Source of the DNA: Sphingobacteriales bacterium
GTDB lineage: Bacteria; Bacteroidota; Bacteroidia; Chitinophagales; JADIYW01
NCBI GenBank assembly: GCA_947460245.1
Contig: CANHGL010000001.1
Span: forward strand, 124,001 to 188,000
Length of the DNA stretch: 64,000 bases
Reading direction: 5' to 3'
Shown: positions 57,210 to 59,382 of the stretch, in pieces
How the letters are laid out: each line of letters begins with the position of its first letter
Position numbering within the stretch: the stretch's first letter is position 1
Translations under genes and position numbers: made by a program
Notes under the pieces: model-generated
What the model was told of the DNA's origin: nothing
Seen by the model: only the letters and a program-made list of their open reading frames with translations
Database searches by the model: none

Positions 57210-58193
57210 ATGGCAAAAGTGACTAAGAAGAAGGTAGCGGCAAAACCTGCAAAAAAAGCAGCTAAGCCGACTAAACCTGCTCCAAAGAAGGTAGGACCTA
57301 AAAAACCGGCGTCCAAACCAGTAAAAAAAACAACCGCAAAGCCTGTTGTAAAAACTACAAAAGCTAAGGTGGCCGCAAAAAAAGTCGCCCCTAAAAAACC
57401 GGCCGCCAAACCAGTAAAAAAAACAACCGCAAAGCCTGTTGTAAAAACTACAAAAGCTAAGGTTGCTCCTAAAGCCAAGCCTGTAATAAAAAAAGCCGTT
57501 GCTAAGCCAGTAAAGAAAGTAGTAGCAAAAGCTAAACCTGCAGTAAAGAAAGCAGCAACCAAGCCTAAGCCTGTAGCAAAAAAAATAATTGCGAAGCCTG
57601 TAAAGAAGCAAGCACCAAAAGTGACTCCCAAGGTTGTTTTAAAAGCTAAACCTGTTACTAAGGTTGAAACTAAACCTGTAAAAAAAGCGCCCGTTAAAGT
57701 TGCTCCTAAATCTGAAATCAAGAAGGTCGAAATAGTAACCGCTGTAAAGCATGTGCAAAAAACTGCCTTAGAAAAAGCAAATGATGTAGCTGCCCAAAGG
57801 CATCTCCACGAACAGAAACCACTGATGCAATCTTCTGTAATGCGTTACAAGGATGCAGACTTAGCTTTATTTAAATCAGTCATCTTAAAGAAGATTGCGA
57901 AAGCCAAAGAGGAAATCGACTTCTATACAGATCAGATTAAAAATACATCTGAATCCGAAACACAATTTGCAAGTATAGATGATGGTTCCATGACCGCTGA
58001 GCGCGAAAACATGAACCAGATCGTAGTACGTATGCAAAAACTAATCTCTCATCTGGAAAGTGCATTGATTCGTATTGAGAATAAATCTTATGGCATCTGC
58101 AGGGAGACGGGAAAACTAATCCCAAAAGAAAGACTCTTAGTAGTCCCACATGCAACACTAAGTGTTGAAGGGAAAAAGATGGAGAAAAAATAA
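57210..58193 (+). CDS. DksA/TraR-family protein with long histone H1-like Lys/Ala/Pro N-terminus
   Basis: This 327-residue protein has two parts. Residues 1 to about 170 are a Lys/Ala/Pro/Val repeat like the tail of histone H1, with a near-duplicate 31-residue unit. Residues about 205-327 are a DksA-like coiled coil plus zinc-finger region (YGICRETGKLIPKERLLVVPHATLS). Only one Cys is present in the finger, so zinc binding through four Cys is not possible. DksA-type proteins bind the RNA polymerase secondary channel. The basic tail should bind DNA or RNA. It is two bases downstream of ileS and is followed by a terminator. Confidence 0.85.
   Translation: MAKVTKKKVAAKPAKKAAKPTKPAPKKVGPKKPASKPVKKTTAKPVVKTTKAKVAAKKVAPKKPAAKPVKKTTAKPVVKTTKAKVAPKAKPVIKKAVAKPVKKVVAKAKPAVKKAATKPKPVAKKIIAKPVKKQAPKVTPKVVLKAKPVTKVETKPVKKAPVKVAPKSEIKKVEIVTAVKHVQKTALEKANDVAAQRHLHEQKPLMQSSVMRYKDADLALFKSVILKKIAKAKEEIDFYTDQIKNTSESETQFASIDDGSMTAERENMNQIVVRMQKLISHLESALIRIENKSYGICRETGKLIPKERLLVVPHATLSVEGKKMEKK
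57297..57463 (+). repeat. 93-base direct repeat inside the dksA-like gene
   Basis: Bases 57297-57370 recur at 57390-57463 with two mismatches (74 bases each, 93-base period). In protein this is the unit PKKPAxKPVKKTTAKPVVKT plus KAKV. It marks a recent in-frame duplication in the Lys-rich region. Confidence 0.85.
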
Positions 58194-58266: not shown

Positions 58267-58917
58267 ATGAGTAAAAAAACGATTGTATACCTTACCATTT
58301 TCTTATCACTGGTAATTGATCAAGCCAGTAAATTTTGGGTAAAGCTAACAATGATGAGCGGCGAGGAATACGCATACTTTGGGCAATGGGCACGTATTCA
58401 TTTTATTGAGAATGAAGGCATGGCATTCGGTATGAGCTTTGGAGTGGGGATGGGAAAGTTTCTGCTAACATTCTCCAGAATAGTAGCAGTTGCTTTTATT
58501 TCCTACTATCTCTCTCAGCAAATTAAGAGCAAAGAATCTTCTAAAGGATTTGTATTTGCAATGGCACTAATACTAGCCGGAGCTATTGGAAATATTATTG
58601 ATAGTATTTTCTTCGGTCAAATCTTCTCCCATAGCGAGGGACAGATTGCAACGCTATTCCCAAAAACAGGTGGGTACGCTGGTTGGTTTCATGGGAGGGT
58701 AGTCGATATGCTTTATTTCCCTTTATGCAGAGGCTACTGGCCCAAATGGGTTCCTTTTGTAGGCGGCGATTATTTTGAATTCTTTCGCTACATCTTCAAT
58801 ATTTCAGATGCCTGCATCACAGTAGGAGTATCTATTATTCTAATTTTCCAAAAAAGATTCTTTAAAGAGGACAGTAGTGAAAACCAATCCGCAGATAGTG
58901 CCCTGCAGCCTAAATAA
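58267..58917 (+). CDS. lspA: Lipoprotein signal peptidase LspA
   Basis: This 216-residue aspartyl protease of the inner membrane cleaves prolipoprotein signal peptides. The family motifs are present: VIDQASKFWVK, ENEGMAFGMSFG, and the two catalytic aspartates in AGAIGNIIDSIFFG and FNISDACITVGV. Four membrane helices are seen. A loop of about 50 residues between the third and fourth helices (around FFGQIFSHSEGQIATLFPKTGGYAGWFHGRV) is longer than in E. coli, as is usual in Bacteroidota. ileS, dksA and lspA keep the usual phylum order. A terminator stands right in front of its start. Confidence 0.95.
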   Translation: MSKKTIVYLTIFLSLVIDQASKFWVKLTMMSGEEYAYFGQWARIHFIENEGMAFGMSFGVGMGKFLLTFSRIVAVAFISYYLSQQIKSKESSKGFVFAMALILAGAIGNIIDSIFFGQIFSHSEGQIATLFPKTGGYAGWFHGRVVDMLYFPLCRGYWPKWVPFVGGDYFEFFRYIFNISDACITVGVSIILIFQKRFFKEDSSENQSADSALQPK

Positions 58918-59058
58918 ATAAGACCCCAGCTTCCTAACATAGAAAACTGAGGTCTTTCGTCCCCCAACTGGACTTAACATTACCGAAGGAAATAAGAGCC
59001 ATACTCCGCAATCTTAATAGATTGCGAAGCACGGTCTTTCGTCCCCCAACTGGACTTA
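58918..59058. repeat. Tandem two-copy structured element with identical 26-base cores
   Basis: The cores at 58951-58976 and 59033-59058 are identical (beginning GGTCTTTCGTCCCCCAACTG), 82 bases apart. Both copies open with AATAAGA(C/G)CC. Copy 1 folds AGACCcCAG with CTGaGGTCT. Copy 2 carries a perfect inner hairpin, CGCAATCT-TAAT-AGATTGCG. Each core itself has GTCC and GGAC arms around CCCAACT. Confidence 0.7.
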
Positions 59059-59382
59059 TCTTAAAATGCTTCTTTAAAAGAAAATAGCATCACTATTTAG
59101 AACTTATTTATAAAATCTGTGCTTAATTATAAACTATAAGGAATTACGCATACACTATTGCATCATTTAGGTCTAGTACGTGCGCCATGATTACAGGGTT
59201 TAAATGGCTTCAGTTTTTATGTATTTCAAATTTATACCCATTCTATCGATTTGTCAATACCTAAGACGATATTTTTATTTTTTTAAAAAATAGGTACTAA
59301 ATCTTCCTCTCCTTAGGCAGCATTTTATCCTTAGATAGGCTAAATAACACTAATTTAGAATCCTAAATATCAAAACACTTCT
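58918..59382. other. Intergenic region between lspA and the ATL gene
   Basis: This 465-base region has no plausible gene. The first third holds a tandem structured element (58921-59058); the rest is AT-rich and without clear hairpins, -7 boxes or repeats that I can point to. The promoter of the following gene must lie here. Confidence 0.6.

What the first reader, a model, noticed from the sequence alone, without database searches (positions are those of the whole stretch)
58918..59058. Two-copy intergenic element with identical core, conserved entry and variable hairpin middle
Two units with an 82-base period keep an identical 26-base tail and a shared opening (AATAAGASCC), while the middle differs but folds in each copy. 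Identical ends with variable folded middles are typical of mobile recombination sites, REP-like units or repeated structured RNAs. Neither copy has a T tract after it, so they are not simple terminators. Nothing I know by name fits.
Basis: seen in the sequence. Interest (0 to 1): 0.55.

Follow-up and report, generated by a model that had tools for sequence, protein, structure and literature searches.

The report
Terminator-linked kissing RNA outliving its gene
The two repeats look like twin copies of a small regulatory RNA on the opposite strand, whose hairpin loop matches a hairpin loop in the start region of a giant surface-protein message; here the RNA seems to have survived although the protein gene it once ended has been lost.

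Summary
The repeat is real, but it is read on the minus strand. Each unit is a small hairpin with an invariant 15-base core (GUCCAGUUGGGGGAC), then a longer hairpin that changes in sequence yet keeps pairing and ends in a U-rich tail like an intrinsic terminator. A covariance model finds it strongly (E 6.6e-18 or better) in 8 of 8 genus genomes; the best of the other 388 order genomes searched has 9e-8. In 7 genus genomes there is one copy, in the 3'UTR of a fast-evolving secreted-protein gene. In the window genome that gene is gone (start codon mutated, body deleted), while promoter, leader hairpins and 3' module remain and the module is doubled. The core's loop is complementary to a hairpin loop (CCCCCAACU-type) in the long 5' leader of a giant exported-protein gene, seen in 7 of 8 genomes; that stem co-varies. 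In one genome the gene lies elsewhere and its leader still carries the loop. Best reading: a 3'UTR-derived, trans-acting sRNA making a loop-loop contact with a surface-protein mRNA leader. Transcription and effect are inferred. It is not a REP unit or recombination site.

The parts
59227..59257 (-). Promoter: TTGACA - 17 bases - TAAATTTG (Bacteroidota TAnnTTTG type)
   Evidence: TTGACAA and the 17-base spacing in 8 of 8 genus genomes upstream of the host ORF or its remnant; second box TAnnTTTG in 7, TAACTTCG in G005
59146..59208 (-). Leader hairpins GCCAU/AUGGC and GCGCACGUAC/GUGUAUGCGU, kept from the lost gene's 5' end
   Evidence: Conserved leader; compared by hand with G007, 5 changes in the second hairpin: 4 keep or make a pair, 1 breaks one (coordinates)
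59144..59188 (-). Remnant of the secreted-protein ORF (MAHVLDLNDAIVYA, then stop); upstream ATG lost, body deleted
   Evidence: Alignment with 7 relatives; the protein profile gives only a weak partial match in the own genome (E 0.0099, positions 183-238 of 245)
58990..59055 (-). Unit 2: core hairpin plus long hairpin plus UUAUUU
59041..59055 (-). Core hairpin of unit 2, GUCC-AGUUGGG-GGAC, the proposed kissing loop
   Evidence: Invariant in 9 of 9 copies from 8 genomes
58996..59036 (-). Terminator-like hairpin of unit 2
58911..58973 (-). Unit 1: core hairpin plus long hairpin plus UUAUUUAUUUA; tail overlaps the lspA stop codon on the other strand
58959..58973 (-). Core hairpin of unit 1
58922..58954 (-). 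Terminator-like hairpin of unit 1
   Evidence: Stem co-varies across the genus

Best explanation
The minus strand carries a small regulatory RNA. A conserved promoter at 59227-59257 starts a transcript of about 300 bases that ends in two tandem 3' modules. Each module shows a small hairpin with the loop AGUUGGG(GG) and then a terminator hairpin. In the 7 other genus members the same promoter, leader and one module frame a gene for a ~250-aa secreted protein, so the RNA began as the 3' end of an mRNA; in the window genome the gene was lost and the RNA persists. The loop pairs with a CCCCCAACU-type loop in the long 5' leader of a giant exported surface-protein gene (loop-loop, 'kissing', contact of about 8-11 pairs) and thereby tunes that gene, most likely by repression. 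Supported by sequence: strand, structure, co-variation, conservation, and complementarity conserved at both ends. Inferred: transcription, termination, RNA-RNA binding, release of a short RNA from the host mRNA, and direction of the effect.
For: Minus-strand folding. On 8 aligned copies the structure has 5 of 15 pairs changed on both sides and 99.2% of 120 cells paired; 0 of 500 shuffles reach the percentage, the both-side counts or the covariation score (25 of 500 reach the number of pair types); versions slid by 1-3 columns give 39-61% paired. The model hits 8 of 8 genus genomes at E 6.6e-18 to 3.0e-26; the other genomes of 396 in the order have 8.7e-8 at best. The host protein is only 31-59% identical to the reference row while the core is unchanged. 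In G005 the module sits behind the host ORF with other neighbours than lspA, so it goes with the host transcript. Host ORF missing in G000 with promoter and leader kept. Of 7 places with the complement CCCCCAACTG outside the module in 8 genomes, 3 lie at the same place, in the leader behind glyA. Orthologous leaders of 7 genomes carry the loop. In 7 of 7 the best core duplex falls on it (-19.0 to -24.7 kcal/mol; 0 to 18 of 1000 shuffled leaders as good). The leader hairpin holds in sum: -35.6 against -11.0 (sd 4.3), 0 of 2000 flank shuffles, and stem pairs 1-5 each have a type changed on both sides. Promoter-like TTGnnn-17-TAnnnTTG lies 227-263 bases before the site in G002, G003, G005 and G008; weaker forms in G000 (TTTATT/TAACTTCG) and G006 (16-base spacing); one more is readable in the G004 leader.
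Against: No transcript data. The core stem (GUCC/GGAC) never varies in the genus, so it has no co-variation support of its own. In G006 and G004 the target loop lacks one A (CCCCACUG), leaving a bulged U. In G007 neither glyA nor the DUF7948 gene was found, so no such leader is shown there. Several leaders were found because they contain the complement; only G008, G006, G005 (glyA orthology) and G004 (protein orthology) came by orthology (0, 11, 18 and 3 of 1000 shuffled leaders as good). Singly the leader hairpins are only modestly better than flank shuffles (2 to 99 of 1000 as good for the six glyA-linked ones). The promoter pattern also matches elsewhere in 5 of the 7 stretches behind glyA. 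The site lies well upstream of the likely start codon, so simple ribosome blocking is not obvious. The 9-mer complement elsewhere is little above the reversed control (20 versus 12). U tails are weak in the window copies.
Confidence: 0.72

Rival explanations
1. Ordinary tandem intrinsic terminators at the end of a lost gene, the core being only a helper (for example an mRNA-protecting 3' hairpin or a protein-binding site) without any RNA target.
For: Terminator hairpin with T run in 7 relatives; module follows the host ORF in 7 of 7 relatives. Tandem terminators at convergent genes are common (recalled).
Against: Core is invariant while the terminator stem drifts; it stays in two copies after the host ORF was lost; a complementary hairpin loop is conserved in orthologous leaders.
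Confidence: 0.15
2. CCCCCAAC is a DNA box bound by one transcription factor at both loci; the RNA complementarity is a by-product.
For: Both loci share CCCCCAAC(TG) on the DNA, and in the leader the box is followed by T[AG]nn[CT]TT[GA] in 6 of 7 stretches behind glyA, which resembles a -7 box.
Against: The invariant palindrome GTCC-N7-GGAC of the module is not conserved at the leader sites; only the loop complement is. The leader site is inside a co-varying hairpin and downstream of promoter-like boxes in most leaders. A factor site between a stop codon and its terminator is unusual (general knowledge).
Confidence: 0.08
3. Remains of a mobile or recombination element (REP, integron attC or similar).
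For: Identical ends with variable folded middles.
Against: One strong locus per genome, behind the host ORF or its remnant in 8 of 8 genus genomes; no attC order of boxes. Not tested: presence of a recombinase gene.
Confidence: 0.02

Closest known systems
GibS and FopS sRNAs of Bacteroides thetaiotaomicron (PMC7366714, PMC11697453; passages seen)
   Same: Bacteroidota sRNAs (FopS: single-stranded 5' stretch plus terminator hairpin) that pair with 5' regions of mRNAs, among FopS targets outer-membrane glycan transporters; 1 of 14 FopS is 3'UTR-derived
   Different: They use a single-stranded 5' seed at the target start codon; here the pairing bases sit in a hairpin loop just before the terminator and the target is a hairpin loop in a long leader. 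Sequence relation not tested beyond the Rfam scan
Staphylococcus aureus RNAIII with its loop-loop targets (PMC8383071; passages seen)
   Same: RNA that carries a coding sequence and contacts mRNA leaders by loop-loop pairing, its terminator hairpin taking part
   Different: RNAIII is 514 nt, with many hairpins and quorum-sensing control; no sequence relation was tested; here the coding part can be lost altogether
[quoted passage not shown] passages seen)
   Same: Regulatory module at the 3' end of an mRNA
   Different: CpxQ is cut out by RNase E and uses Hfq; processing is unknown here, and in the window genome the whole transcript is non-coding

Membership tests
Trans-acting base-pairing sRNA | Own transcription unit with promoter and terminator | tested here: inconclusive
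   Conserved promoter boxes and terminator hairpin; U tails weak in the window; no expression data
Trans-acting base-pairing sRNA | Conserved pairing region complementary to a conserved site in another mRNA | tested here: met
   Invariant core; complementary hairpin loop in orthologous leaders of 7 of 8 genomes
Trans-acting base-pairing sRNA | Effect on target expression through pairing | not testable with these tools
   Needs reporter or binding assays
3'UTR-derived sRNA | Encoded at the 3' end of an mRNA | tested here: met
   Behind the host ORF in 7 of 7 other genus genomes; in the window genome the ORF is lost
3'UTR-derived sRNA | Released by processing or an internal promoter | not testable with these tools
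   No RNA data
REP / REPIN units | Many dispersed copies per genome | tested here: not met
   One strong locus in each of 8 of 8 genus genomes
Integron attC site | RYYYAAC ... GTTRRRY at the ends of the unit (boxes recalled) | tested here: not met
   In 58890-59080: one RYYYAAC and no GTTRRRY on plus, the reverse on minus
Rfam 15 families | Score at or above a family's gathering score | tested here: not met
   0 matches in the window and in the 7 loci behind glyA; best below threshold E 0.02, 24.9 of 90 bits
GibS / FopS | R1 seed in a single-stranded 5' end followed by a terminator | not tested
   Seed sequences were not compared; the deduced architecture differs

The most novel reading that the evidence does not exclude
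An RNA-RNA contact between the 3' end of one surface-protein message and the 5' leader of another has outlived both proteins. In the window genome the host ORF is deleted and no DUF7948 target gene is found, yet the core loop (now doubled) and the matching leader loop, now before an unrelated giant Ig-repeat exported protein, are both kept, so an mRNA tail has become a free-standing kissing-loop sRNA that tunes whatever giant adhesin-like gene sits behind the leader. Look-alike hairpins before long hairpins in two genomes of another family (loop ACUUGGG) may mean that such modules are older than the genus.
Probability: 0.45. Interest if true: 0.75.

Novelty: new member of a known kind. Interest (0 to 1): 0.6.

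Why it matters
If true, this genus holds a natural series: the regulatory module as part of a coding mRNA in seven genomes and as a stand-alone, doubled non-coding RNA in the eighth. That makes the question of how sRNAs arise from mRNA 3' ends directly testable. It would also add a loop-loop sRNA acting on giant exported proteins in Bacteroidota, with an exact, mutable pairing site. None of the listings of six searches of the held library describes it; most of the papers listed were not opened.

Tried and rejected
Wider spread of the core: none of the 33 viral-contig matches to the 15-mer continues with the AA(A)GACC hairpin; set aside as chance. Of 3 genome-contig matches one is G007's own contig (JAQBNI010000074.1) and two are taken as chance. 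L084 (G205) has the exact core, but inside a 520-codon open frame, near its start: chance. The reversed-pattern control gave 3 hits against 1 outside the genus.

Both genomes are of one other family. No host ORF leads directly into either. Distant relatives or chance. Near the 21 other weak matches of the two model searches that I compared (L083, L084 and L091 apart) the core has 4 or more mismatches.

Pairing between the host mRNA's own 5' leader and 3' core: no consistent site. Function through lspA: dropped because in G005 the module has other neighbours. Other complement sites: of 20 places with the 9-mer outside the module, 4 are the leader, 12 lie inside open frames on either strand, and 4 do not, or lie just before a start codon: L154 (G005), L111, L120 and L166 (G007); these four have no orthologous support.

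Row dropped before counts: the G004 site behind glyA (CCCCCAACAAAC) gave no better hairpin than shuffles (813 of 1000 as good). It was replaced by the leader of the G004 DUF7948 ortholog (L169), found by protein search; searches use that one. The alignment of typed hairpins still held the old G004 site and was not used further.

Full report
The observation. The window holds two units with an identical 26-base stretch, 82 bases apart, in the interval between lspA and a short 6-O-methylguanine-DNA methyltransferase-type gene. Chance gives no such pair. On the minus strand the fold is much stronger (z -7.63 against -3.71), because positions that are mismatches on plus are G-U pairs on minus. Read 5' to 3' on minus, each unit is GUCC-AGUUGGG-GGAC, GAAA, a long hairpin, then UUAUUU.

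Spread. A pattern search in the family and the order first found one relative in the genus. Looking antisense to lspA in the genus showed the same module in G002, G003, G004, G006, G007 and G008. A covariance model built on 8 copies then found strong matches in 8 of 8 genus genomes (E 6.6e-18 or better), including G005, where lspA itself was not found. Of the other 5 family genomes 4 gave weak matches (E 4.9e-4 at best) and 1 none; near those matches the core has 4 or more mismatches. Among 396 genomes drawn from the order, searched with stricter filters, 20 had a match at E 0.01 or better: the 8 genus members and 12 others. One of the 12 has the exact core, inside an open frame (G205). Two, both of one other family, have a core-like hairpin before a long hairpin (G188, E 8.7e-8, CUCU-ACUUGGG-GGAG; G392, E 0.0024). 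The rest have the core at 4 or more mismatches. So in its exact form the element is confined to one genus in these data, one locus per genome, doubled only in the window genome; the two look-alikes are left open.

Structure. The long helix co-varies (5 of 15 pairs changed on both sides, 99.2% of 120 cells paired, 0 of 500 shuffles as high on percentage and covariation score, 25 of 500 on pair types). The 15-base core does not vary in 9 copies. In the 7 relatives the long hairpin is followed by a T run, which makes it an intrinsic terminator by form.

Host gene. In 7 of 7 relatives the module follows, within tens of bases, the stop codon of an ORF of 232-250 aa with an N-terminal signal-like stretch (by eye) and a C-terminal part weakly like the type IX sorting domain in one of the members scanned, below cut-off. 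One full-length copy was found in each of those 7 genomes; in G000 only a weak partial match to the C-terminal region appears (E 0.0099), as in several other large proteins of the genus. In G005 the ORF and module have other neighbours. So the module goes with the ORF. Upstream, TTGACAA and a second box 17 bases on are conserved in 8 of 8 (TAnnTTTG in 7, TAACTTCG in G005), with a leader that folds into two hairpins in most members. In the window the promoter and the leader remain, the first ATG is disrupted (GCCATTTAAACCC), a 14-codon remnant is left and the body is missing. In the second leader hairpin, counted by hand against G007, 4 of 5 changes keep or make a pair and 1 breaks one. Host proteins are 31-59% identical to the reference row while the core is identical, so the RNA core is under stronger constraint than the protein.

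Target. The complement of the core loop and 3' arm, CCCCCAACTG, occurs 16 times in the 8 genomes: 9 are the module itself; the reversed control has 2. Of the other 7, three (G000, G002, G003) lie at the same place: behind glyA, before a large exported-protein gene; two lie upstream of other ORFs in G007 and two antisense inside ORFs. GlyA was found in 7 of 8 genomes (not G007). In G000, G002, G003, G005, G006 and G008 the region behind glyA carries the complement, exact or with one or two changes, inside a hairpin loop. In G004 the region behind glyA has a different gene and a doubtful site, but the ortholog of the exported protein lies on another contig, and its leader carries AAAGAC-GCCCCCCACUG-GUCUU. 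So the loop goes with the surface-protein gene. The proteins are homologous in G002, G003, G004, G006 and G008; the two scanned (G003, G004) are DUF7948 proteins, with SBBP repeats in G004. In G000 it is an unrelated protein of at least 1104 aa with Ig-like repeats; in G005 the contig ends.

Tests of the pairing. For all 7 leaders the most stable duplex with the 15-base core falls on the loop (-19.0 to -24.7 kcal/mol); 0 to 18 of 1000 dinucleotide-shuffled leaders and 0 to 5 of 1000 shuffled cores do as well. The leader hairpin, with the loop kept open, has a summed energy of -35.6 against -11.0 (sd 4.3) when the flanks are shuffled, 0 of 2000 as low; singly, 2 to 99 of 1000 shuffles do as well in the six glyA-linked ones. 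Stem pairs 1 to 5 each have a type changed on both sides. Promoter-like boxes lie 227-263 bases before the site in four leaders, in weaker form in two, and by eye in the G004 one, so the site is probably transcribed; the loose pattern also matches elsewhere. Outside promoter and loop the leaders align poorly. I read this as a loop-loop contact.

Possible further targets. In G005 a strong hairpin (-14.9 kcal/mol) shows two copies of CCCCCAAC in its loop, about 120 bases before a sulfotransferase gene. In G007 the complement lies before a beta-lactamase-fold protein with a type IX sorting tail, before a frame of 125 codons, and before an ammonium transporter. None has orthologous support.

Limits. 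There is no expression or binding datum. The complement search partly selected the leaders it then scored; the four that came by orthology (G008, G006, G005, G004) give 0, 11, 18 and 3 of 1000. G006 and G004 need a bulged U. G007 shows no such leader. Several genomes are incomplete (G004 86%, G005 85%), so absences there are soft. Whether the contact represses or activates is not decided; repression is my guess because the GibS and FopS sRNAs mostly repress (passages).

Known context. No Rfam 15 family matches. The nearest described RNAs are GibS and FopS in Bacteroides, RNAIII for loop-loop contacts and coding capacity, and CpxQ-type 3'UTR sRNAs (passages). No sequence membership in these named RNAs is claimed.

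Noticed in passing
57210-58193 (+): DksA/TraR zinc-finger protein with a long Lys/Ala/Pro-rich, histone-H1-like N-terminal stretch; the homologs seen beside lspA in 6 other genus genomes carry such tails of varying length, while those seen in 5 genomes of other family genera are open frames of 124-133 aa without it.
   Followed up: partly
58911-58921: The U tail of unit 1 on the minus strand overlaps the stop codon of lspA on the plus strand; the two transcripts would converge within a few bases.
   Followed up: no
L154:1476-1523 (G005): Strong intergenic hairpin with two copies of CCCCCAAC in its loop, upstream of a sulfotransferase gene; possible second target of the RNA.
   Followed up: partly
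L111:1501, L120:103, L166:1501 (G007): Complements of the core upstream of other ORFs in G007: a beta-lactamase-fold protein with type IX sorting tail, a 125-codon frame, an ammonium transporter. Further targets or chance.
   Followed up: partly
L083:54-120 (-) in G188; L091:1501-1569 (-) in G392: Core-like hairpins with loop ACUUGGG before long hairpins in two genomes of another family; in G188 the stem differs on both sides (CUCU/GGAG). Possible distant relatives.
   Followed up: partly
L182:750-4061: Giant exported protein of at least 1104 aa with similar Ig-like repeats behind the leader in the window's genome, cut by the contig end.
   Followed up: partly
L137, L135, L169 leaders: A second A/U-rich hairpin (for example CCUUAAA..UUUAAGG), seen by eye, follows the target hairpin in several leaders; it may be part of the switch.
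   Followed up: no
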